Source: Brucella haematophila (GTDB taxonomy: Bacteria > Pseudomonadota > Alphaproteobacteria > Rhizobiales > Rhizobiaceae). Taken from it: DNA of 64,000 nucleotides. The translations under genes were made by a program, and so were the position numbers. The stretch is taken from contig NZ_VCPE01000002.1 in assembly GCF_005938105.1 (NCBI RefSeq), positions 310,001-374,000 on the forward strand, read 5' to 3'. Position 1 is the stretch's first letter. Each line of letters opens with the position of its first letter. Under the pieces are notes generated by a model. That model was given only the letters and a program-made list of their open reading frames with translations. It was not told the DNA's origin and did no database searches. Shown in pieces: positions 33,958 to 63,404 of this stretch.

Positions 33958-35568
33958 ATGAGAGAGACCGGCATTCACAATACGGCCGCTTCCATTGCCA
34001 CTTCGGGACTGAAGGAACTCTCCGCAGTCTTTTATAACCTCGGGCCTGCTCGGCTTTATGAGGAAACCATCCGCCGTGGCGAAGCCGAACTGACCGCACA
34101 GGGCGCGCTTGTCGCCCGCACCGGCCAGCACACCGGTCGTTCGCCGAAGGACAAGTTTGTGGTCCGCGACGCCAATACCGAAGATCAGGTCTGGTGGGAC
34201 AACAACAAGCCGATCACCCCGGAAGCCTTCGAGCTTCTCTATGCCGATTTCATCGAGCATGCGAAGGGCAAGGAGCTTTTCGTTCAGGATCTCATCGGCG
34301 GCGCAGATGCCGACAACAAGATCAACGCCCGCATCGTGACCGAATATGCCTGGCATTCGCTGTTCATCCGCAACCTGCTGATCCGCCCGGCCCAGGAAGA
34401 GCTTGCTTCCTATGTGCCGGAAATGACGATCATCGATCTGCCGTCCTTCAAGGCCGATCCGGAACGTTATGGCGTGCGCACCGAAACGGTGATCGCGGTC
34501 GATCTGACCCGCAAGATTGTGCTGATCGGCGGCACCTCTTATGCTGGTGAAATGAAGAAGTCGGTATTCACCGCGCTCAACTATCTCCTGCCTGCCAAGG
34601 GCGTGATGCCGATGCATTGCTCGGCCAATGAAGGTCCGAACGGCGACACCGCCGTCTTCTTCGGCCTGTCCGGCACGGGCAAGACCACGCTTTCCGCCGA
34701 CCCGACGCGCACGCTGATCGGCGACGACGAGCACGGCTGGGGCGAGCATGGCATCTTCAACTTCGAAGGCGGCTGCTATGCCAAGACCATCCGTCTTTCC
34801 GCCGAAGCAGAGCCGGAAATCTATGCCACGACGCAGCGTTTCGGCACGGTGCTGGAAAATGTCGTTCTCGACGCCAACCGCCAGCCGGATTTTGACGATG
34901 GTTCGCTGACCGAAAACACCCGTTGCGCCTATCCGCTCGATTTCATCCCGAATGCATCGAAAACGGGCAAGGGCGGCCAGCCGAAGAACATCATCATGCT
35001 CACCGCCGATGCTTTCGGTGTGATGCCTCCAATCGCCAAGCTGACCCCGGCGCAGGCCATGTACCACTTCCTGTCCGGTTACACGGCAAAGGTTGCTGGC
35101 ACCGAAAAGGGCGTCACCGAACCGGAAGCAACCTTCTCGACCTGCTTTGGCGCACCGTTCATGCCGCGTCACCCGTCGGAATACGGCAATCTGCTGCGCC
35201 AGCTGATCGCCGAACACAAGGTCGATTGCTGGCTGGTCAATACCGGCTGGACCGGCGGCGCCTATGGCACCGGCAAGCGCATGCCGATCAAGGCAACCCG
35301 CGCGCTTCTGGCTGCGGCTCTTGACGGTTCGCTGAACAATGCGGAATTCCGCGTCGATCCGAATTTCGGTTTTGCCGTTCCGGTTGAAGTGCCGGGTGTG
35401 GATACGTCCATTCTCGACCCGCGTTCGACCTGGGCCGACAAGGCTGCCTATGACGCACAGGCCAAGAAGCTGGTCGACATGTTCGTCACGAACTTCGAAA
35501 AGTTCGAACGCCACGTCGATCACGAGGTCAAGGACGCAGCACCGGCAATCCGCGTCGCTGCTGAATAA
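33958..35568 (+). CDS. pckA: Phosphoenolpyruvate carboxykinase (ATP)
   Basis: First step of gluconeogenesis: decarboxylates oxaloacetate to PEP using ATP. It is 536 residues long, the family norm, with no frameshift. The kinase loop is [18 protein letters not shown] (about 240-257), the metal site is [17 protein letters not shown], and the substrate Arg lies in [14 protein letters not shown]. Some Brucella strains are reported to carry a defective pckA; here the frame is open to the end. It diverges from bvrR, whose regulon may include it. Confidence 0.97.
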
Positions 35569-35670
35569 AATCGCTCAGAGATACTGAGGCCAGAATACTG
35601 AGGAGGGAGAGAGCCCGGCCAGCGCGCCGGGTTTTCTTTTGCACTCAATTCCACCTCCCACATTGGCGCG

Positions 35671-35940
35671 CATGGTTTTCTCCGCATGCCCTTGCTCCAA
35701 AACCGCTTCGCACTTTGGGGGGCATAACTTTCTCCGCATGCCCTGATCCCAAAACCGCTTCACACTTTGGGGGCATGACTTTTTCCGCATGCCCTGATCC
35801 CAAAACCGCTTCGCACTTTTGGGGGGCATAACTTTCTCCGCATGCCCTGACCCCAAAACCGCTTCGCACTTTTGGGGGGCATAACTTTCTCCGCATGCCC
35901 TGACCCCAAAACCGCTTCGCACTTTTGGGGGGCATGCGTG
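35671..35940. repeat. Five tandem ~53-bp hairpin repeats downstream of pckA
   Basis: Five units begin TCCGCATGCCC at 35681, 35733, 35784, 35837 and 35890, so spacings are 52, 51, 53 and 53. Each has CCAAAACCGCTTCGCACTTT followed by a run of five or six G. The last three contain CCCAAAA...TTTTGGG arms that would form a hairpin. Units 4 and 5 are identical. The spacing is not a multiple of three, so the long minus-strand open frame over it is unlikely to be coding. It lies in a 420-bp gap between pckA and arfB that otherwise holds nothing. Confidence 0.9.
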
Positions 35941-35990
35941 CGCCGGGTTTTCTTTTGTCCAAAAGTGACGAAGCGTGTATGCGTTCTCTC

Positions 35991-36428
35991 ATGGAAGAGA
36001 ACCGGAACATCATCCGCATCACCAATCGCCTGACGATCCGCGAGGACGATCTGGAGGAAAGCTTCATTCGCGCCTCTGGTCCCGGCGGACAGAACGTCAA
36101 CAAGGTTTCAACGGCGGTGCAGCTACGCTTTCATGCGGCGCAATCGGGATTGCCGGAAGATATTCTCACGCGCCTCTTCAAGCTGGCCGGTCAGAAAGGC
36201 ACCAAGGACGGTGACATTCTCATCGAAGCCAATCGCTTCCGCACGCAGGAGCGCAACCGCGAAGACGCCCGCGAACGGCTGATTGCCCTGATCGCCAAGG
36301 CCGCCGAACCGCCACCGCCGCCACGCAAGAAGACAAGGCCCACCAAAGGCTCCGTCGAGCGACGCCTGAAAGCAAAATCAGGCCGCGCGGATATCAAAAA
36401 AGGACGCGGCAAGGTTTCCTTCGACTGA
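35991..36428 (+). CDS. arfB: Alternative ribosome-rescue factor ArfB (peptidyl-tRNA hydrolase YaeJ)
   Basis: Releases stalled ribosomes on non-stop mRNA by hydrolysing peptidyl-tRNA. It is 145 residues long, near E. coli ArfB (140). The GGQ catalytic motif is ASGPGGQNVNKVSTAVQLRF at about residues 25-44. The C-terminal tail is strongly basic (RKKTRPTKGSVERRLKAKSG), as needed to enter the mRNA channel. No ribosome site is clear; an in-frame ATG at 35979 would add four residues. It follows the tandem repeats. Confidence 0.92.
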   Translation: MEENRNIIRITNRLTIREDDLEESFIRASGPGGQNVNKVSTAVQLRFHAAQSGLPEDILTRLFKLAGQKGTKDGDILIEANRFRTQERNREDARERLIALIAKAAEPPPPPRKKTRPTKGSVERRLKAKSGRADIKKGRGKVSFD

Positions 36429-42178: not shown

Positions 42179-42838
42179 TCAAGGCTTCCATTTCAGGAAA
42201 TTGGCAATGAGCGAAAGGCCGAGCAGCTGGCTCTTTTCCGGGTGGAACTGGGTTCCCACCATATTGTCGCGACCGACAGCAGCGGTAACATCGCCACCGT
42301 AATCCGTCACGGCCAGAACCTCGTCCGCCTTCTTCGCGTCGAACATATAGGAATGGACGAAATAGGCGTGCAAGCCGTTCTCGCCGGTCTCGATTCCATC
42401 GAAAATCGGATGCGCCTGATGCGATTGTTTCACGTGAATCCGATTCCAGCCGATTTGCGGAATCTTCAGTGTCGGGTCAGACGGCGTCATTTCGCGCACA
42501 TCGCCCGCGATCCAGCCGAGGCCTTCGGTCACGGTCTTTTCCAATCCGCGCTCGGACATGAGCTGCATGCCGACGCAAATGCCGAGAAACGGATGGCCCT
42601 TCTTGATGACAACTTCATCAAGCGCTTCAACCATGCCCGACACGGCATGAAGACCGGCACGGCAATCGGCATAAGCGCCAACGCCCGGCAACACCACGCG
42701 GTCGGCAGAGGCCACCCGCGCGGCATCTGCCGTCAGTTCGATTTCGGCATTTATGCCGCTTTCACGGGCGGCACGCTCAAAGGCCTTGGTGGCCGAGCGA
42801 AGATTGCCGGAACCATAGTCGATTATCGCAACACGCAT
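42179..42838 (-). CDS. hisH: Imidazole glycerol phosphate synthase, glutamine amidotransferase subunit
   Basis: Glutaminase subunit that feeds ammonia to HisF. It is 219 residues long. The class I amidotransferase triad is visible: Cys in [13 protein letters not shown], and His and Glu in [10 protein letters not shown]. The start [15 protein letters not shown] at 42838 matches the family; a longer in-frame reading adds a non-conserved stretch that overlaps the DUF2628 gene. It carries a 14/16 parS-like sequence within its coding region (42426-42441). Confidence 0.97.
42426..42441. other. Degenerate parS-like site inside hisH
   Basis: TGTTTCACGTGAATCC matches the parS consensus TGTTTCACGTGAAACA at 14 of 16 bases. 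It is the same 16-mer as in hemJ. It lies about 14 kb left of the putative origin, and its coding constraint is IHVKQ in HisH. ParB binding is uncertain. Confidence 0.35.
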
Positions 42839-44096: not shown

Positions 44097-44230
44097 AGGG
44101 GGCTGTTCTTAAATATCCACATTGAAACGCGATTCATCCGGCAAGACGACCGGCTGAAGTGGTTCACCCTCAGATGAAGGGGCTTGTGGGATCGCCGTCC
44201 GGGATTGCATGAGCCGCCAAAGGAGCATCC

Positions 44231-54817: not shown

Positions 54818-55409
54818 CGATGAGATGTTCCTTGCGCAGTTCGGCAAGCAGCGGCAGCAGCGGCAGGCCGACAATCGTAAAATAATCGCCTTCGATCTTC
54901 TCGAAAAGCTGGATGCCCGGACCTTCCACCTGGTAAGCGCCGACGCTGGAAAGCGCGCTGTCGCCAACCCGGCCGAGATAGCGCCCGACAAAAGCCGGAT
55001 CGAGCTTGCGCATGGTCATGCGCGCAACCGAAACATGACGCCACAGGGTCTCGCCGTCTTTCACCAGAACCACCGCGCTGTTGAGCTGGTGCGTCTTGCC
55101 GGAAAACTGCAAAAGCTGACGCCCCGCCGCTTCCATATTGGCAGGCTTATGGAAAATCTCGTCACCAAGCGACAAGGTCTGGTCGCAACCAATCACCACA
55201 GCACCCGGATTTTTTTCGCTCACATCGAGCGCCTTGGCTTCAGCCAGAACCTGGGCCACTTCTTCCGGCGTTGCGCCCGATTCATAAAGCGGCGCTTCGA
55301 CGGCGCGCTCATCAATATCGGCGCTTTCGCCCGAAAACTCGATTCCGGCATTTTTCAACAGCGCCGAGCGGAAAGGGCTCTTGGAAGCAAGAATGAGCCT
55401 GGTCGTCAT
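54810..55409 (-). CDS. maf: Maf-family nucleotide pyrophosphatase
   Basis: House-cleaning NTP pyrophosphatase of 199 residues. The N-terminal [15 protein letters not shown] and [15 protein letters not shown] are the family signatures; [25 protein letters not shown] is the C-terminal one. Which nucleotide it hydrolyses (dTTP/UTP or 7-methyl-GTP type) cannot be told with certainty. The ATG overlaps the ppsR stop in ATGA. Confidence 0.94.
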
Positions 55410-56245
55410 GATTGAAATCCTTCGTTCTTCCCGGTGCGCAAAAGTGCCAATATGGCGGCAGCCGTTTCCTCGATGGAACGGCGCGACACATCGATGATCG
55501 GCCAGCCATGTCTGTTGCAGATGTTGCGCGCAAAGGCCAGTTCTTCGGAAATGGACACCCGGTCTGTGTAAAGTCCCGTATCGAGTGATGGTACACTGCC
55601 GAGCGGTCTGTTCTGACGGATTTGCGAGATTCGCTCCGCAGTCGCAACCAGCCCGACAATCAGCGGACGCTTGGCCGTGAACAGAACTTCTGGAACGGGA
55701 ATGCCCAAAACGATTGGAACATTGGTCGCCTTCACGCCGCGATTGGCAAGATAAATGCTGGTTGGCGTCTTGGATGTACGCGAAATGCCGACCAGAATGA
55801 CGTCCGCCTCCTCGATATCGAGCGGCAATTGTCCGTCATCATGCTCCATCGTGAAATTCAGCGCGTCGATCCGGCGGAAATAATCGGCATTGAGCACATG
55901 CTGCGCGCTTGCGCGGCGATGTGCCGGCGCACCCAGATAAGACTGGAACGTGTTCAGCACCGGTTCCAGCACCGAAACGCTGGGAACGCCCATTTCCGCA
56001 CAGGCCTCATCGATGATCGCGGCCAGTTTCTGATCGACAATCGTATAGAGAACGATGCCCGGTTCGGCATCGATCCCTTCCAGAACCTTGCGCAGCTGTT
56101 TCTCGGTACGGATCAGTGGATAAATATGCTCAATGGCCCGCGCATTGGCATATTGCGCCGCTGCCGCGCGTCCGGCTGCGAGGAGAGTCTCTCCGGTCGC
56201 ATCAGAAATCAGATGGAGATGAAAGTAGGAAAGCGTTCTGGTCAC
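55406..56245 (-). CDS. Pyruvate, phosphate dikinase regulatory protein (DUF299; GTG start)
   Basis: ADP-dependent kinase/pyrophosphorylase (DUF299) that inactivates or reactivates PPDK or PEP synthase by Thr phosphorylation. It is 279 residues long. The P-loop is [17 protein letters not shown] in [13 protein letters not shown]. The start is a GTG at 56245 ([18 protein letters not shown]) with a strong AGGAGGGC eight bases upstream. It is the first leftward gene beside the putative origin and heads the ppsR-maf-aroE-coaE-dnaQ run. Confidence 0.92.
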
Positions 56246-56700
56246 AGTTTTGTTGCCCTCCTGTTGACGGCTGTGCGTAAGGCCGAGGCTTCTTCCACAA
56301 GCCATGGCAGGCCGTGGAAAAATTGGCAAGTCATCCACAGCGGGCGAACATGTGCGAAGCAGCCATCAACATGTGTGGACAAGACTCGCAATTTCGGGAA
56401 ACCTCTCAATTATTCCCAGCTTTTCCACAAAAGCGCATGAACTGCGTCAATTGGTAACCCTTTATATTAAAAGAGGGAATTGAGTTTTTTGCGTTTTCCG
56501 TCAGACTGGCGGCGAAAAATTGCACAAGGTAAGTTGGCAATTTCGGAACTGTGGGGAAAACCGGGACAGACCTTAATCCCCGATTCCAACAGACTCTAAG
56601 AATCAAAAGATTCCTGAATCATCCTTTCTTTATGAGAACCGGACTGGATAACTTCAGACCAAAACCGGATCAGGCAACCAACAAGGCGGATAAAAATCAG
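56246..56700. other. Putative chromosome replication origin
   Basis: A 455-bp gap with no gene. DnaA-box-like 9-mers on either strand: TCATCCACA (56331), TGTGGACAA (56375) and TTTTCCACA (56421), each 8/9 to TTATCCACA, and weaker 7/9 ones at 56291, 56313 and 56550. An AT-rich stretch lies at 56458-56500. Five GANTC sites lie at 56582-56620, plus one at 56384. Genes diverge from it (ppsR left, hemE right). Caulobacter's origin also adjoins hemE. Confidence 0.7.
56582..56620. promoter_or_regulatory. Cluster of five GANTC (CcrM) sites before hemE
   Basis: GATTC 56582, GACTC 56592, GAATC 56600, GATTC 56609 and GAATC 56616: five sites in 39 bp where one per 256 bp is expected at random. GANTC is methylated by CcrM in alphaproteobacteria. 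A role in origin or hemE control is inferred. Confidence 0.7.
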
Positions 56701-57726
56701 ATGAAACGCAAAGTCTTGAGAGTGATCGACGGTGAAGCGGTCTTTCCACCTCCCATCTGGATGATGCGTCAGGCCGGTCGCTACCTTCCCGAATACCGAG
56801 AGACACGGAAGAAGGCAGGGAGCTTTCTCGATCTGTGTTATTCGCCAGATCTGGCTGTCGAAGTGACGCTTCAGCCAATCCGCCGTTTTGGCTTTGATGC
56901 AGCCATTCTCTTTTCCGACATTCTGGTCATCCCTCACGCCCTTGGGCGCGACCTTCGCTTTGAAGAGGGCAAGGGACCTTTGATGACCCCAATCGACGCC
57001 GACGAGATTTTCTGGCTTGAGACGGAAGGTGTCGCCAAACGGCTGGAGCCGGTCTACGAGACGGTTCGGCTGCTGCGCGAGCAGTTGCCCGACGAAACGA
57101 CACTGCTCGGCTTCTGTGGCGCTCCCTGGACCGTTGCGACCTATATGATCGCCGGTCATGGCACGCCGGATCAGGCACCTGCCCGTCTTTTCGCCTATCG
57201 CTTCCCGGAAGCCTTCGAAAAGCTTTTGAATGATTTAGCTGATGTGTCTGCCGAATATCTCATCGAACAGCTGGATGCTGGCGCAGACGCCGTACAGATT
57301 TTCGATTCATGGTCCGGTGTTCTGGATGAAGATTGCTTTGAGCGGTTCTGCATCCAGCCGGTGGCGCGGATTGTTCAGAAAGTTCGCGCTGTCTATCCCG
57401 AAGCGCGCATCATCGGTTTCCCGAAAGGGGCAGGGATGCTTTATGCGGGCTACCGCGAAAAGACGGGCGTTGATGTGCTCGGCCTTGACTGGTCTGTGCC
57501 GCTCAATTTCGCAGCAGCCTTGCAGGAAGATGGCGCCATTCAGGGCAATCTCGATCCTTTGCGTGTTGTTGCGGGCGGTTCCGCACTTGATGAAGGTGTG
57601 GATGCAATCCTCGAACGTCTGGGGAAAGGCCCACTGATCTTCAATCTCGGACATGGCATTACACCTCAAGCGCCGGTCGAGAATGTCCAGCGCATGATCG
57701 ATCGTATTCGTGGAGAAAAATCGTGA
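56701..57726 (+). CDS. hemE: Uroporphyrinogen decarboxylase
   Basis: Heme pathway enzyme of 341 residues that decarboxylates uroporphyrinogen III to coproporphyrinogen III. The N-terminal signature is [19 protein letters not shown], and [18 protein letters not shown] and [16 protein letters not shown] are the other conserved parts. The ATG at 56701 gives the family length; a longer upstream reading would run into the putative origin. Its last codon overlaps the hemJ start as GTGA. Confidence 0.97.
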
Positions 57727-58259
57727 GCCAGCCAGTGTCGAAGAGCAGCACCAAGGCTGCCTATATCCGCATGATCGCAGCGCTCGTGATTGTGGTGCTT
57801 GGCGTCTGGGCATTGTTTCACGTGAATCCAACCGACGCCTATCTCTGGGTGAAGGCGGTTCACGTGATCGCGGTCATCGCCTGGATGGCCGGAATGCTCT
57901 ATCTGCCACGGCTGTTCGTCTATCACACAGCGACCAAGCCCGGTTCTGAAGCTTCCGAGACTTTCAAGGTGATGGAAAAGCGACTGCTGCACTTCATCAT
58001 CAACCCGGCCATGGCCGTGACCTGGATTGCCGGTCTGTGGATGGCTTGGGAAATCTTCCGCTTTCAAGGCGGCTGGCTGCACGCCAAGCTGCTGCTGGTT
58101 GTGCTGATGTCCGGCATGCATGGCTATCTCTCGAAAGCGACGCGCCTTTTTGCGGAAGACAAAAACACGAAATCGGCAAAGCATTGGCGAATCGTTAACG
58201 AAGTGCCAACCATTCTGATGGTCCTAATCGTCATTCTGGTGATCGTAAAACCATTTTAA
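57723..58259 (+). CDS. hemJ: Protoporphyrinogen oxidase HemJ (GTG start)
   Basis: Membrane enzyme of 178 residues that oxidises protoporphyrinogen IX, the HemJ/UPF0093 type. Four or so membrane helices with conserved His: [26 protein letters not shown], then [24 protein letters not shown], and [21 protein letters not shown] at 57723 overlaps the hemE stop by four bases (GTGA), coupling successive heme steps. A degenerate parS-like 16-mer lies in its coding region at 57814-57829. Confidence 0.95.
57814..57829. other. Degenerate parS-like site inside hemJ
   Basis: TGTTTCACGTGAATCC matches parS at 14 of 16 and is identical to the 16-mer in hisH. It is 1.1 kb right of the putative origin. ParB binding is uncertain. 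Confidence 0.45.
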
Positions 58260-58489
58260 TTGTAGTTTTGTGAGAAAAAGAAGCCCGCTTTGTCGGGTTT
58301 CTGCCATTTTCCCGTTGCAGAATTTATCTGCGGTCACTACATGTGACTTGCTCTTCATATCGCAAATCGGTATGAAGAAAGCCTCTTCCCTTCCTGATCG
58401 CAGGCCTTCGATGCCGGTCCAGCCATCCAGCTGACCAACTTTCCGAACAACTGCATTTTCTCCTTATATTTCAAAAGAGTTCCTCATCC

Positions 58490-59755
58490 ATGCAGGAAAT
58501 GAAACTACAAGAACTAAAAAATAAAACACCGGTTGAGCTGCTTGCTTTTGCCGAAACCCTTGAAGTCGAAAATGCGAGCGCGATGCGCAAGCAGGAACTG
58601 ATGTTCGCGATTCTCAAGAAGCTGGCTTCGCAGGATGTCGAGATCATCGGTGAAGGCGTTGTCGAAGTGCTGCAGGACGGTTTTGGCTTCCTGCGCTCCG
58701 CTGATGCCAATTATCTGCCAGGCCCCGACGATATTTATATTTCTCCTTCGCAGCTGCGCCGCTTCTCGCTGAAGACTGGCGATACGGTTGAAGGCCCGAT
58801 CCGTGGCCCCAAAGAAGGCGAGCGCTATTTTGCGCTTCTCAAGGTCAATTCGATCAATTTTGAAGACCCGGAAAAGATTCGCCACAAGGTTCACTTCGAC
58901 AATCTGACGCCGCTCTATCCGAATGAGCGCTTCAAGATGGAACTGGAAGTTCCGACCTCCAAGGATCTGTCGCCGCGCGTCATCGATCTGGTTGCACCGC
59001 TCGGCAAGGGCCAGCGTGGTCTGATCGTCGCTCCGCCACGTACCGGTAAGACTGTTCTGCTGCAGAACATTGCACACTCGATCACCGCCAATCATCCAGA
59101 ATGCTATCTGATCGTTCTTCTGATCGACGAACGTCCGGAAGAAGTGACCGACATGCAGCGTTCGGTAAAGGGTGAAGTCATTTCGTCAACTTTCGACGAA
59201 CCGGCAGCGCGTCACGTGCAGGTTGCTGAAATGGTCATCGAAAAGGCCAAGCGTCTGGTTGAACATGGTCGCGACGTTGTGATCCTGCTCGACTCGATCA
59301 CCCGCCTTGGCCGCGCTTACAACACTGTTGTTCCGTCATCCGGTAAGGTTTTGACCGGTGGTGTGGATGCCAATGCACTCCAGCGTCCGAAGCGTTTCTT
59401 CGGTGCTGCGCGTAACATCGAAGAAGGTGGTTCGCTCACCATCATCGCGACCGCGCTGATCGATACGGGCAGCCGTATGGACGAAGTGATCTTTGAAGAA
59501 TTCAAAGGCACGGGTAACTCGGAAATCGTTCTCGACCGCAAGGTTGCAGACAAGCGCATCTTCCCGGCCATGGACATTCTCAAGTCCGGTACCCGTAAGG
59601 AAGATCTGCTCGTTCCGCGCGCCGATCTGCAGAAGATCTTTGTTCTGCGCCGTATCCTCGCGCCGATGGGCACGACCGATGCGATCGAATTCCTCATCGA
59701 CAAGCTCAAGCAGACCAAGAGCAATGGTGAGTTCTTCGATTCGATGAACACCTAA
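58490..59755 (+). CDS. rho: Transcription termination factor Rho
   Basis: Hexameric RNA helicase that ends transcription, 421 residues. The N-terminal domain has [28 protein letters not shown] (RNA binding). Walker A is [16 protein letters not shown], and [15 protein letters not shown] is the Walker B region. [20 protein letters not shown] contains the Q-loop. An alternative ATG at 58499 would shorten it by three. The 230-bp leader shows no gene; Rho leaders are usually autoregulated, but I see no clear element. Confidence 0.97.
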
Positions 59756-59915: not shown

Positions 59916-61928
59916 TCACGCTCCGCTCGTCAGAAGAATGCGCAATGCGTCGTCATTCTCTACCGGCGGCAGACAGACCTGTCCTTTGCAGAACCATGCC
60001 GATGGCTTCTCTGCCCGGGCAGTACCGCCTGTCGGCAGTTCAATCACCGCATCCGGCGTGAAACTGACAATTTTGTCGAGACGACGCGGATCCGGATTTC
60101 GATTCGCTATCGAAACAAGCTCATCTTGATGAGACTGCGCGGCGATGACAAGCGATAGCGGTTCGGCAGCCATGCGGGCTGCATTCAATATGCCGATCTG
60201 ACCATATTGCTGTGCGAGTGCGCGGCCTAACGCTTCCTCGATCAACGTCTCATTGCTTCGGTAAAGCGTCATGTCACCGGTTGCGAGGAAAAGCCGCGTC
60301 AGCGCTTCGATAATCTGGCTGGTCGCGCTGGGGATAGCCTCGTCATAATCACCATAGGCGTGAAGAATGACATCGTCGGCATCCAGCGCAGATAGACGGT
60401 AATTATCGGAAGCATCCCGGTGGTGGTCATCCAACGCCTGTTTGAGCTTCCGGGCGTCATCAATGTAGCTCCGGTCGGAACTTGCTTCATAGAGTGCCAG
60501 TGCGGCATTGATTATACCGGCATAGTCCGTCGACAGGGCAGGGTAGACCAGCCGATCCTGCATACGGCAATGCGCCATTTTCCCCGCGCGGAATGGCATC
60601 ATGATCGCCTGATAGGCTTCGACCGCCAAAGTCACCCATTCCGGTTTGGCGAAGCTTCGTCCGGCCTCTGCAAGCGCACGGATCGCAAGTGCATTCCAGT
60701 CGGTCAGCGCCTTGTCATCGCGTCCCGGACGAATGCGTGTTTCACGCTGTGCGAATAGCTTTGCCTTGGCGCCCCGTATCGACGGCGTCGCCGCTGCATC
60801 AGCATTCACGTTATGCAAGCGGTTCAGAATAGTATGGCCTTCCCAGTTTCCTCCTGGGGAAACACCATAGAACGTCTTGAACGCCTTGCTATCCTCTCCC
60901 AAAACGCTGTCTATCTCCGCCTCGCTCCAGACGTAGAATTTTCCTTCTTCGCCTTCGCTATCGGCGTCGAGGCTAGACGCGAAACTACCGTCCGGCAGTC
61001 GCATTTCACGGACCAACCAATCAATGGTTTCTTCGATTCGTATGCGGAACAAATCATCTTTCGTTTCCGCAAAGGCATAATTGGCGTGTCGGATCAGCTG
61101 CGCATTGTCATAGAGCATTTTCTCAAAATGCGGCGCGAGCCACTCGGCATCCGTGCTGTAGCGGCACAGACCACCGCCGAGATGATCATAGATGCCGCCT
61201 TGCAGCATGGTCTTCAACGAGCGGATAAACTTGTCCCGGTTATCGCTGTCGTGATTATAGAGCCAGGATAGCCACAGCGCGTCCATGAATGGAGCATTGG
61301 GAAATTTAGGAGCGCCTTCGATGCCACCGCGTACCGGATCAATAAGACCACTGATCCGTTGCGTTACATCATCAAAGCGCGCAATTTCATTCGGAGTGGC
61401 GGCATTTTGCGCGGCGAGCCGACCTTCCAGATGATTGAACACCGCCTCGGCATTATGGTTAATTTTTTCTTTATCTCCTTGCCAGAGATTGTTCACGGCC
61501 TTTAATACATCGACAAAACCCGGCATGTTGTGGCGTGCGTGGGGCGGAAAATACGTGCCGCCCCAGAAGGGCTTTCCGTCAGGTCGCAAGAACATGGTCA
61601 AGGGCCAGCCACCTTGCTGTCCCATCGCGCCAAGCGCGGCCATATAGATCTGGTCTATGTCCGGTCGTTCCTCGCGATCGACCTTCACATTCACGAACAG
61701 GTCGTTCATCACTGCAGCGACATCAGCATCTTCGAACGATTCATGGGCCATGACATGGCACCAGTGACAGGCAGCATAACCAATCGAAAGCAGGATAGGG
61801 CGGTTTAACTCACGTGCTGTGTCGAGGGCTTCTTTTCCCCAGGGCTGCCAATGAACAGGGTTATCCGCATGTTGGCGCAGATAGGCACTGGGTTCCGCAG
61901 ACAGCCTGTTTCTGCTGATATCCGTCAT
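59916..61928 (-). CDS. YyaL/SPATA20-like thioredoxin-domain protein (DUF255)
   Basis: Protein of 670 residues. Residues 1-165 form a thioredoxin-like DUF255 domain with the redox motif [14 protein letters not shown] (CHWC, about residues 53-56) and [16 protein letters not shown]. The rest is an alpha/alpha-barrel, resembling N-acylglucosamine 2-epimerase or glycosidase folds ([34 protein letters not shown]). The family includes mammalian SPATA20 and B. subtilis YyaL; no confirmed substrate. It points against its rightward neighbours. Confidence 0.92.
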
Positions 61929-62014: not shown

Positions 62015-63343
62015 ATGAACGACACCGCTGTGCATCACGATACGATTTTTGCCTTGTCCAGCGGGCGGCTTCCGTCTGGTGTTGCTGTGGTGCGAGCATC
62101 TGGCCCTAAAGTTCGATTCATCATTGAAACGATTCTCGGCTCCGGCATTGAACCACGATATGCAGCCTATAAGACATTCCGCTCCCGAAATGGAGACGCG
62201 ATTGATCGTGGATTAGCACTCTTCTTCCCCGGACCGCATAGTTTTACAGGCGAAGACTGTGTCGAATTTCATCTGCACGGTGGAATAGCTGTTGTTGAAA
62301 AACTGCTAGTGGAACTGGGCGAGATAGCAGGCTGCCGTATTGCAGAGGCAGGTGAATTCACCCGACGTGCTTTCACCAATGGTAAAATGGATCTGACAAT
62401 TGCAGAAGGTCTGGCAGATCTCATCGCGGCTGAGACCGAAGGGCAGCGACGTCTTGCCTTGCAAGTAGCTTCAGGCGCGCAACGCCAACTCTATACGGAT
62501 TGGCGGCAGAGGCTTGTTCGTGCGCGGGCGTTTATTGAAGCTGAACTCGACTTTGCAGATGAGAGCGATGTCCCAGGCTCGGTTTCTGATCAGGTATGGC
62601 GATCCTTGAAAGAGCTACAAAAGGAAATCGAGCTGCATATTGCCAGCGGCAAGCGCGCAGCCATGCTTCGTGATGGTTTGCATGTAGTGATTGCCGGTGC
62701 GCCGAATGCGGGCAAATCGAGCTTGCTTAACTTTCTCGCTGGACGGGAAGTGGCGATCATATCGGATGAGGCGGGAACGACACGCGATCTTCTGGAAGTC
62801 AAACTCGACCTCAATGGCATCCCGGTTTACGTCACTGATACGGCTGGTCTGCGCGAGACCGAAAGCGCTGTTGAAAAGATTGGCATCGAGAGAGCCCGCG
62901 AAAGAGCATCGGAAGCCGACCTCATTCTTCTGTTGGAAGACATGAGTGATCCAATTGATGTGACACTTAACGAGGCTGATGTCGAAATTTGGCGCATTGG
63001 AACCAAGGCCGATCTAACGGGAGGCCTTTCTGAACGATGGACTTTCCATATTTCAATCAAGAGTGGCTCTGGGTTAGACGAACTTTTAGCCGCTCTTCAA
63101 TCTTTCGCTGAAGAACGGATTGGCCAGATCAACGATGCCGTCCCTACAAGGCAGCGCCATATCAATTTGCTCCACTCTACGCTTACTGAGATTGAAACCG
63201 CCGCACGCCGTGATGATCTCCCACTAGAATTGCGAGCGGAGAACATGCGCAGGGCGTCCCAATACCTCGGTCGCATCACCGGTGACGTGGATGTTGAGGA
63301 AATCCTCGATGTGATCTTCTCGCAGTTTTGCATTGGCAAGTGA
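62015..63343 (+). CDS. mnmE: tRNA modification GTPase MnmE
   Basis: With MnmG, makes the 5-carboxymethylaminomethyl modification of U34 in tRNA. It is 442 residues long. The folate-binding N-terminal domain runs to about 120. The G domain has GAPNAGKSSLLNFLAG (G1), DTAGL (G3) and GTKADL (G4). The C-terminus ends FCIGK, with the conserved Cys. CAGGAA lies before the ATG. Its TGA is part of a 15/16 parS-like palindrome. Confidence 0.97.
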   Translation: MNDTAVHHDTIFALSSGRLPSGVAVVRASGPKVRFIIETILGSGIEPRYAAYKTFRSRNGDAIDRGLALFFPGPHSFTGEDCVEFHLHGGIAVVEKLLVELGEIAGCRIAEAGEFTRRAFTNGKMDLTIAEGLADLIAAETEGQRRLALQVASGAQRQLYTDWRQRLVRARAFIEAELDFADESDVPGSVSDQVWRSLKELQKEIELHIASGKRAAMLRDGLHVVIAGAPNAGKSSLLNFLAGREVAIISDEAGTTRDLLEVKLDLNGIPVYVTDTAGLRETESAVEKIGIERARERASEADLILLLEDMSDPIDVTLNEADVEIWRIGTKADLTGGLSERWTFHISIKSGSGLDELLAALQSFAEERIGQINDAVPTRQRHINLLHSTLTEIETAARRDDLPLELRAENMRRASQYLGRITGDVDVEEILDVIFSQFCIGK

Positions 63344-63356
63344 TTCACGTGAAACA
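63341..63356. other. parS-like site overlapping the mnmE stop codon
   Basis: TGATTCACGTGAAACA matches the parS consensus TGTTTCACGTGAAACA at 15 of 16 bases; the mismatch is the third base, fixed by the TGA stop. It is 33 bases upstream of a perfect parS. Confidence 0.8.
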
Positions 63357-63388
63357 TTGGCCTGTTGGGGCAGAGATGATTCTTGGAA

Positions 63389-63404
63389 TGTTTCACGTGA
63401 AACA
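63389..63404. other. Perfect parS centromere site
   Basis: TGTTTCACGTGAAACA is an exact match to the bacterial parS consensus and a perfect palindrome, in the mnmE-mnmG intergenic gap. ParB nucleates here for chromosome segregation. parA/parB usually follow mnmG-rsmG, beyond the right edge. Confidence 0.93.

What the first reader, a model, noticed from the sequence alone, without database searches (positions are those of the whole stretch)
56246..56700. Chromosome replication origin candidate between ppsR and hemE
Several independent signals coincide in one gene-free 455-bp gap: three 8/9 DnaA-box-like 9-mers and more 7/9 ones, an AT-rich stretch (56458-56500), a GANTC cluster, and divergent gene orientation on both sides. 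Caulobacter's origin also adjoins hemE, and here the parS sites and mnmE/mnmG lie a few kb to the right.
Basis: partly seen in the sequence, partly recalled or inferred. Interest (0 to 1): 0.7.

Follow-up and report, generated by a model that had tools for sequence, protein, structure and literature searches.

The report
Chromosome origin with unusual opening site
The gap is very probably where this bacterium starts copying its main chromosome, as expected next to hemE, and it holds a short element that steps in threes, shared by most of its family, which may be where the DNA is first pulled open and which differs from the known opening motif.

Summary
DnaA-like boxes are far above chance, skews turn in this region, and the gap lies between hemE and a COG1806/PF03618 gene, the pair that flanks Caulobacter's origin. 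The same gap, median 408 bp, recurs across the family and in Sinorhizobium meliloti. That part is ordinary.

In 98 of 108 hemE-upstream loci (107 family genomes) a degenerate DnaA box runs into ACMGASTCWWAGAAWYARAA and then AT-rich DNA. Conservation goes in steps of three, which fits a ladder for DnaA on single-stranded DNA, like DnaA-trios; but the published trio rule is not met there. Many alphaproteobacteria outside the family hold other three-step arrays near the same place. The family's DnaA differs where B. subtilis DnaA captures trio bases: Trp for Asn187 and Ala for Ile190, 27 of 27; I190A destroys single-strand binding in B. subtilis.

Origin: about 0.95. Ladder as opening site: about 0.6, by inference only.

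The parts
56246..56700 (.). Origin region (oriC) of the main chromosome, between ppsR and hemE
   Evidence: Box enrichment, skews, gap of constant length in the family
56272..56280 (-). DnaA-like box TTACGCACA (1 mismatch to TTATNCACA)
   Evidence: lies in a family-wide minus-strand box cluster
56331..56339 (+). DnaA-like box TCATCCACA (8/9)
   Evidence: in a family-wide plus-strand cluster
56374..56382 (-). DnaA-like box TTGTCCACA (8/9)
   Evidence: in a family-wide minus-strand cluster
56410..56418 (+). DnaA-like box TTATTCCCA (1 mismatch to TTATNCACA)
   Evidence: in a family-wide plus-strand cluster
56421..56429 (+). DnaA-like box TTTTCCACA (8/9)
   Evidence: in a family-wide plus-strand cluster
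56458..56500 (.). Central AT-rich stretch, alternative candidate for the opening site
   Evidence: AT 0.65; a raised AT bin of 0.61-0.62 at -130 to -101 before the ladder in the family
56575..56581 (+). AATCCCC, conserved flank left of the ladder
   Evidence: AATYCY in the last 180 nt in 73 of 106 family loci against 19.4 shuffled
56583..56591 (+). Degenerate DnaA box (5/9 here) running into the ladder
   Evidence: In 97 family rows TTATNCACA fits best at exactly this offset: 30 of 97 with at most 2 mismatches, 7 with at most 1
56588..56609 (+). Family-conserved three-step ladder; candidate DnaA single-strand (opening) element
   Evidence: Found in 98 of 108 family loci; phase information 0.90/1.57/1.97 bits
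56582..56620 (.). Five GANTC (CcrM-type) sites within and beside the ladder
   Evidence: in the family 55.2 per kb in the ladder window against 4.9 per kb in the rest of the gap
56598..56638 (.). AT-rich DNA right of the ladder start
   Evidence: AT 0.71; 0.69-0.80 in the family bins +10 to +49
55406..56245 (-). ppsR, Kinase-PPPase (PF03618), left border of the origin
56701..57726 (+). hemE, uroporphyrinogen decarboxylase (PF01208), right border of the origin
63341..63404 (.). Two parS sites (one with 1 mismatch, one perfect) 6.6 kb right of the gap

Best explanation
The gap is the DnaA-dependent origin of the main chromosome. DnaA binds the boxes in the ppsR-side two thirds, whose places are conserved (sequence shown, binding inferred). 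From these, and from a degenerate plus-strand box at 56583-56591, DnaA loads as a filament taking three bases per subunit onto one strand of the ladder at 56588-56609, and the duplex opens there and into the AT-rich DNA beside it (inferred from three-step conservation, from the order box - ladder - AT, and from other three-step arrays near the same place in many relatives). Helicases then enter and two forks leave; the skew turn says forks have long left from this region. In this family the ladder differs from DnaA-trios, and DnaA has changed at residues that read trio bases in B. subtilis, so initiator and origin probably changed together (correlation only). Which strand is held is not settled. 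The GANTC sites lie in the ladder and would be methylated by CcrM, but need not control firing.
For: Boxes 11 against 1.22 expected, 0 of 2000 shuffles. Skew negative left (9 of 11 stretches, 7 of 7 window pieces), positive right (9 of 9); same-genus replicon with two arms, 9 of 9 and 10 of 11 stretches of the expected sign; A-T and combined skew extremes at 56821 and 56813. Gap with divergent ppsR in 83 of 108 family loci, median 408 bp. Ladder in 98 of 108 loci. It stays with ppsR in one genome where hemE moved, and before hemE in 10 genomes where no ppsR was found. Three-step conservation: 49 of 100000 column permutations reach the observed spread. CTA/CCA/CAA x3 in 14 of 29 loci of other orders (0.78 expected), CAACAACAA in 4 of 28 of the same order (0.00 expected). 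DnaA Trp187 and Ala190 in 27 of 27 family members; Trp187 in 0 of 33 others, Ala190 in 3 of 33. Same two borders as Caulobacter's origin (PMC1914354, passages).
Against: G-C minimum is 5 kb to the right. No CtrA site with fewer than 2 mismatches. The published trio rule is not met at the ladder; it is met by three minus-strand boxes elsewhere in the gap (56374, 56643, 56685), and in the family it is met 55-150 nt before hemE in 7 of 106 loci, 3.5 expected. The ladder adenines are on the hemE-sense strand, against the published trio geometry if the boxes lie to the left. Ten of 108 loci lack a scoring ladder. DnaA differs at 16 fixed positions of residues 110-290, not only where it reads bases. 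Skew in G113, where hemE moved, is near zero and gives no support. Rows share ancestry (68 distinct 22-mers of 97).
Confidence: 0.93

Rival explanations
1. The gap is the origin, but the conserved ladder is a double-strand site of a regulator, or the promoter or leader of hemE-hemJ with GANTC sites read by CcrM/GcrA; opening happens in the central AT stretch.
For: The ladder begins a median of 74 nt before hemE and in G113, where hemE has gone, still 121 nt before hemJ. GANTC is found at the first ladder site in 95 of 97 rows and is 55.2 per kb there against 4.9 in the rest of the gap. A central AT-rich stretch exists. Cells overexpressing CcrM are said to gain chromosome copies in Caulobacter (cited in PMC3973325, section 15).
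Against: Steps of three in conservation and a box in fixed register before it are not expected of a promoter. 29 of 97 ladder windows have one GANTC and one has none. CcrM depletion gave no clear change at A. tumefaciens ori1 (PMC11514494, passages), and C. crescentus without CcrM controls initiation normally (PMC3973325, section 15). The S. meliloti oriC region gave no transcription signal (PMC2245857, passages).
Confidence: 0.3
2. The origin is not in this gap but 5-7 kb to the right, near the G-C minimum and the parS sites; the gap is only a box-rich promoter region.
For: Cumulative G-C minimum at 61785; parS at 63341 and 63389.
Against: No other part of the window is as rich in 1-mismatch boxes. 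A 2-kb minus-strand gene (59916-61928) can pull the G-C minimum (inference), while A-T and combined skews turn just right of the gap. Gap length and boxes are conserved in the family. The borders are those of Caulobacter's origin (PMC1914354, passages).
Confidence: 0.04

Closest known systems
Caulobacter crescentus chromosome origin (Cori), between hemE and COG1806
   Same: Both border genes; length (404 bp in PMC1914354, passages); DnaA boxes; AT-rich stretch; GANTC sites reported in it (PMC3973325, section 15)
   Different: No good CtrA sites here, where Cori has five; only a 1-mismatch IHF site; the family ladder has not been compared with Cori itself (no named Caulobacter record was fetched)
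Sinorhizobium meliloti chromosome origin
   Same: S. meliloti 4H41 holds an exact match to the 47-bp family form of the ladder, 42 nt before hemE and 327 nt from divergent ppsR. Experimental mapping next to hemE (Sibley et al. 2006) is recalled; not held
   Different: The Rhizobium/Sinorhizobium form of the ladder keeps one GANTC where the window has four within the ladder span and its edges
Basal unwinding system with DnaA-trios (B. subtilis; PMC8287927, PMC6669920, PMC10721633, passages and one section)
   Same: DnaA box, then an array in steps of three, then AT-rich DNA
   Different: Box degenerate (5/9), array not 3'-GAT-5', adenines on the other strand, and DnaA has Trp and Ala where B. 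subtilis has Asn187 and Ile190
E. coli oriC opening repeats with Dam (GATC) sites (recalled)
   Same: Methylation sites inside opening repeats beside DnaA boxes; a T-rich strand running the same way
   Different: GANTC/CcrM in place of GATC/Dam; no sign of sequestration; not compared by any search

Membership tests
hemE-linked alphaproteobacterial oriC (Cori type) | Borders hemE and COG1806 (PF03618) | tested here: met
   Pfam matches to both neighbours
hemE-linked alphaproteobacterial oriC (Cori type) | Cluster of DnaA boxes beyond chance | tested here: met
   11 against 1.22, 0 of 2000 shuffles
hemE-linked alphaproteobacterial oriC (Cori type) | AT content above the genome | tested here: met
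   Gap AT 0.53, window 0.42; the whole genome was not measured
hemE-linked alphaproteobacterial oriC (Cori type) | Shift of GC skew | tested here: met
   the exact G-C minimum is 5 kb off
hemE-linked alphaproteobacterial oriC (Cori type) | CtrA sites TTAA-N7-TTAA | tested here: not met
   Best match has 2 mismatches; PMC1914354 (passages) finds some related predicted origins without them, so I do not treat it as required
hemE-linked alphaproteobacterial oriC (Cori type) | IHF site | tested here: inconclusive
   One match with 1 mismatch at 56601, no chance control made
hemE-linked alphaproteobacterial oriC (Cori type) | Autonomous replication and DnaA binding | not testable with these tools
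   Needs a plasmid assay and footprinting
DnaA-trio basal unwinding system | DnaA box with at most 2 mismatches and, within 0-16 nt, at least 3 NAN triplets on the trio strand, at the ladder | tested here: not met
   No hit at the ladder; three minus-strand hits elsewhere in the gap at 56374, 56643, 56685, for which no chance control was made in the window
DnaA-trio basal unwinding system | Conservation in steps of three next to a box | tested here: met
DnaA-trio basal unwinding system | Opening of the duplex by DnaA at the array | not testable with these tools
   Needs a strand-separation assay

The most novel reading that the evidence does not exclude
In this family the DnaA-trio type opening array of the chromosome origin has been replaced by a strictly conserved, different three-step ladder (GAS TCW WAG AAW YAR AAR), read by a DnaA whose base-capture site was rebuilt (Trp and Ala at the places of B. 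subtilis Asn187 and Ile190): a natural change of code between an initiator and its origin. A bolder extension, to which I give about 0.1: the first ladder adenine (56593) is the one CcrM would methylate, on the N6 amine that DnaA reads in B. subtilis, so methylation could act directly on opening.
Probability: 0.5. Interest if true: 0.72.

Novelty: new variant of a known kind. Interest (0 to 1): 0.5.

Why it matters
The origin itself is where precedent puts it. What matters is the ladder. PMC8287927 (passages) did not find DnaA-trios in 15% of the genomes it examined and suspects deviant trios. Here is a candidate deviant array, present in 98 of 108 hemE-upstream loci of one family, with matching changes in DnaA, in a lineage that includes Sinorhizobium and Rhizobium. 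It turns the question how DnaA and the opening motif change together into a swap experiment, and it offers a plainer reason for the GANTC cluster than methylation control. I found no paper on it in the held library: the one paper with both 'DnaA-trio' and 'alphaproteobacteria' is about epsilonproteobacterial origins (listing only), and the listings of the origin and GANTC searches show none by title. Most subscription papers are not held, and listed papers were not all opened.

Tried and rejected
Considered and dropped. (1) Small ORF over the ladder: the two frames whose variable columns would be third codon positions hold stops in 56 and 61 of 97 rows; the one frame free of stops has its variable columns at second positions. 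(2) RNA element: no Rfam match up to E = 1 in 55000-58500. (3) CtrA-controlled origin: best site has 2 mismatches. (4) Canonical trios: not met at the ladder. My first impression that other alphaproteobacteria carry canonical 3'-GAT-5' trios was too strong: by the strict rule 3 of 29 do (0.8 expected); what they share is C[TAC]A repeats, 14 of 29. (5) GANTC methylation as the main function: see PMC11514494 and PMC3973325. (6) Skew around ppsR and around the moved hemE in G113: near zero on both contigs, says nothing. (7) Class-wide pattern search with up to 3 mismatches: 2 of 289 genomes, one being the window's own; the other (G202, 3 mismatches) may be chance, since the reversed control pattern also hit one genome. 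(8) The DNA search of the family (41 of 151 genomes) pointed to the ladder by short hits but under-counts it; the hemE-anchored count is the fair one. Rows left out: one locus (L175, ladder 195 nt from hemE) was kept out of the 97 aligned rows; L133 and L208 were kept out of the 106 family loci. Of the class matches outside the own genome 29 of 87 were examined, of the order matches outside the family 28 of 38, in both cases the best by E-value. The 60 DnaA genomes were picked by hand. The box/array picker is greedy and several of its rows are not arrays; counts come. Shuffles keep single-base content only.

Full report
What was checked. The window is 310001-374000 of a 538-kb contig in a 5.5-Mb draft genome of 55 contigs. 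The gap 56246-56700 lies between ppsR (PF03618), leaving to the left, and hemE (PF01208), leaving to the right. DnaA-like 9-mers: three with one mismatch to TTATCCACA and eleven with two or fewer, against 0.09 and 1.22 in dinucleotide-preserving shuffles; 0 of 2000 shuffles reach either. No other part of the window has as many one-mismatch boxes; with two mismatches to TTATNCACA allowed, a place near 35.4-36.1 kb is as rich. The AT-rich stretch, the GANTC cluster and the parS sites are real.

Is it an origin? On the own contig the GC skew of sampled 10-kb stretches is negative left of the gap in 9 of 11 (and in 7 of 7 window pieces of 8 kb) and positive right of it in 9 of 9. In a same-genus genome with a 2.83-Mb replicon (G034, gap 90% identical), 9 of 9 stretches on one arm are negative and 10 of 11 on the other positive; one turn is at the homologous gap (2.69 Mb), the other between 1.29 and 1.42 Mb. 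In the window the cumulative A-T maximum is at 56821 and the (G+T)-(A+C) minimum at 56813; the G-C minimum alone is at 61785, perhaps pulled by a 2-kb minus-strand gene (the cause is inference). dnaA is 145 kb to the left on the same contig.

Precedent. Caulobacter's origin lies between hemE and COG1806 and is 404 bp long; the same pair flanks the predicted Rickettsia origins (PMC1914354, passages). The S. meliloti origin next to hemE (Sibley et al. 2006) is recalled; the paper was not held. PMC2245857 (passages) used the S. meliloti oriC intergenic region as an untranscribed control.

Family comparison. The gap DNA was found in 35 of 35 genomes of the genus. hemE was sought in 111 genomes of the family: 107 had it, giving 108 rows. 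All 108 upstream regions were examined (loci; counts). In 83 a divergent ppsR is the neighbour, at a median of 408 bp (quartiles 402 and 415, range 269-519). In the 78 of these with a scoring ladder, one-mismatch boxes (TTATNCACA) average 3.32 per gap against 0.32 after shuffling, none has zero, and they gather in position clusters. The five such boxes of the window each fall in one of these clusters.

The ladder. The best conserved part of the gap is not a box but 56588-56609 with its left flank. A 19-column matrix finds it on the plus strand at a score of 15 or more in 98 of 108 loci. The ten misses are G113's moved hemE, the second hemE of G066, loci of three small genomes (G040, G077, G126) and five others (L177, L180, L186, L190, L197); four of these five show an altered form at the same place by eye. 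The best background score in forty 10-kb stretches was 12.2 against a member median of 29.0; four of the misses score between 8.1 and 12.4, a range that proves nothing. In 97 aligned rows, columns +5, +11, +14 and +17 are adenine in all and +20 in 99%, with C at +2 (all) and +8 (98%) (column 0 = 56588). Mean information by phase is 0.90, 1.57 and 1.97 bits, and 49 of 100000 permutations of columns give as large a spread. Rows share ancestry (68 distinct 22-mers among 97), so this describes and does not prove. On the left stand AATCCCC and a degenerate DnaA box that fits best at exactly one offset (30 of 97 with at most 2 mismatches). On the right AT is 0.69-0.80.

Natural experiments. In G113 hemE lies on another contig without a ladder, while ladder and ppsR stay together beside hemJ. 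In ten other genomes ppsR was sought and not found, and the ladder is still before hemE, with maf-like sequence beyond (the neighbour is judged by eye). For the further loci without a divergent ppsR no ppsR search was made. Named records: an exact 47-bp form of the Rhizobium/Sinorhizobium type gives 63 stretches, each with one match, all titled Rhizobium, Sinorhizobium, Ensifer or Rhizobiales bacterium; 61 of 63 lie directly before hemE (in the other two the fetched stretch ends first) and 62 have divergent ppsR. The pattern was chosen from that clade, so its limits say nothing about the rest of the family.

Outside the family. Of 29 loci from other orders, 14 hold three successive CTA/CCA/CAA triplets in the last 180 nt before hemE (0.78 expected), several directly after a good plus-strand box. 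Of 28 loci from other families of the same order, 4 hold CAACAACAA (0.00 expected) and 6 four successive [ACT]AA triplets (0.28 expected); the two sets may overlap. None of these 57 holds the family ladder by pattern, though one order locus (L277) reaches 18.0 by the matrix. So in many lineages the place holds a three-step array whose letters differ by lineage; in the rest none was recognised.

DnaA. From 60 genomes picked by hand (27 family, 17 same order, 16 outside), aligned with B. subtilis DnaA (8btg): position 187 is Trp in 27 of 27 family members and in 0 of 33 others; position 190 is Ala in 27 of 27, 3 of 17 and 0 of 16; one residue is missing shortly before the conserved EF of the TQEEF motif in 27, 17 and 0. 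In B. subtilis Asn187 contacts the N6 amine of the trio adenine, and I190A is the change used to abolish single-strand binding (PMC10721633, PMC8287927, PMC6669920, passages). Sixteen positions of residues 110-290 differ in a fixed way between family and outside, spread beyond this site, so the match suggests and does not show co-change.

Reading. The simplest account is an ordinary DnaA origin whose opening module has a lineage-specific alphabet. It would work like a basal unwinding system but does not meet that system's published rule at this place, so I do not file it as a member. The strand is open: the adenines are on the hemE-sense strand, while published geometry would put DnaA on the other one, which here reads as a thymine ladder. 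GANTC sites number 225 in the 97 ladder windows (55.2 per kb) against 4.9 per kb in the rest of the gap, yet 29 of 97 windows have only one and one has none. CcrM depletion gave no clear change at A. tumefaciens ori1 (PMC11514494, passages), and C. crescentus without CcrM controls initiation normally, although CcrM overexpression is cited there as adding chromosome copies (PMC3973325, section 15). I think the cluster is mostly a by-product of the ladder.

Noticed in passing
window 42426-42441 and 57814-57829: Two further parS-like 16-mers with 2 mismatches (both TGTTTCACGTGAATCC); the second lies inside hemJ.
   Followed up: no
window about 35441-36115: A second place with as many weak DnaA-like 9-mers (2 mismatches to TTATNCACA) as the gap; not examined.
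   Followed up: no
L038 (G113): hemE has left the origin while hemJ, ppsR and the ladder stayed; its hemE lies on another contig.
   Followed up: partly
G046, G048, G053, G074, G075, G081, G085, G091, G128, G135: No ppsR match in these ten genomes although the origin gap with ladder remains before hemE.
   Followed up: partly
DnaA alignment: DnaA of the order, family included, scores lower on the general DnaA model (398-508 bits) than the 16 outside proteins (533-578 bits) and lacks one residue before the TQEEF motif.
   Followed up: partly
G011:C1: This genome has two full-scoring copies of the gap on one contig, at 44178 and 2461760; it may be an uncut circular end or a real duplication.
   Followed up: no
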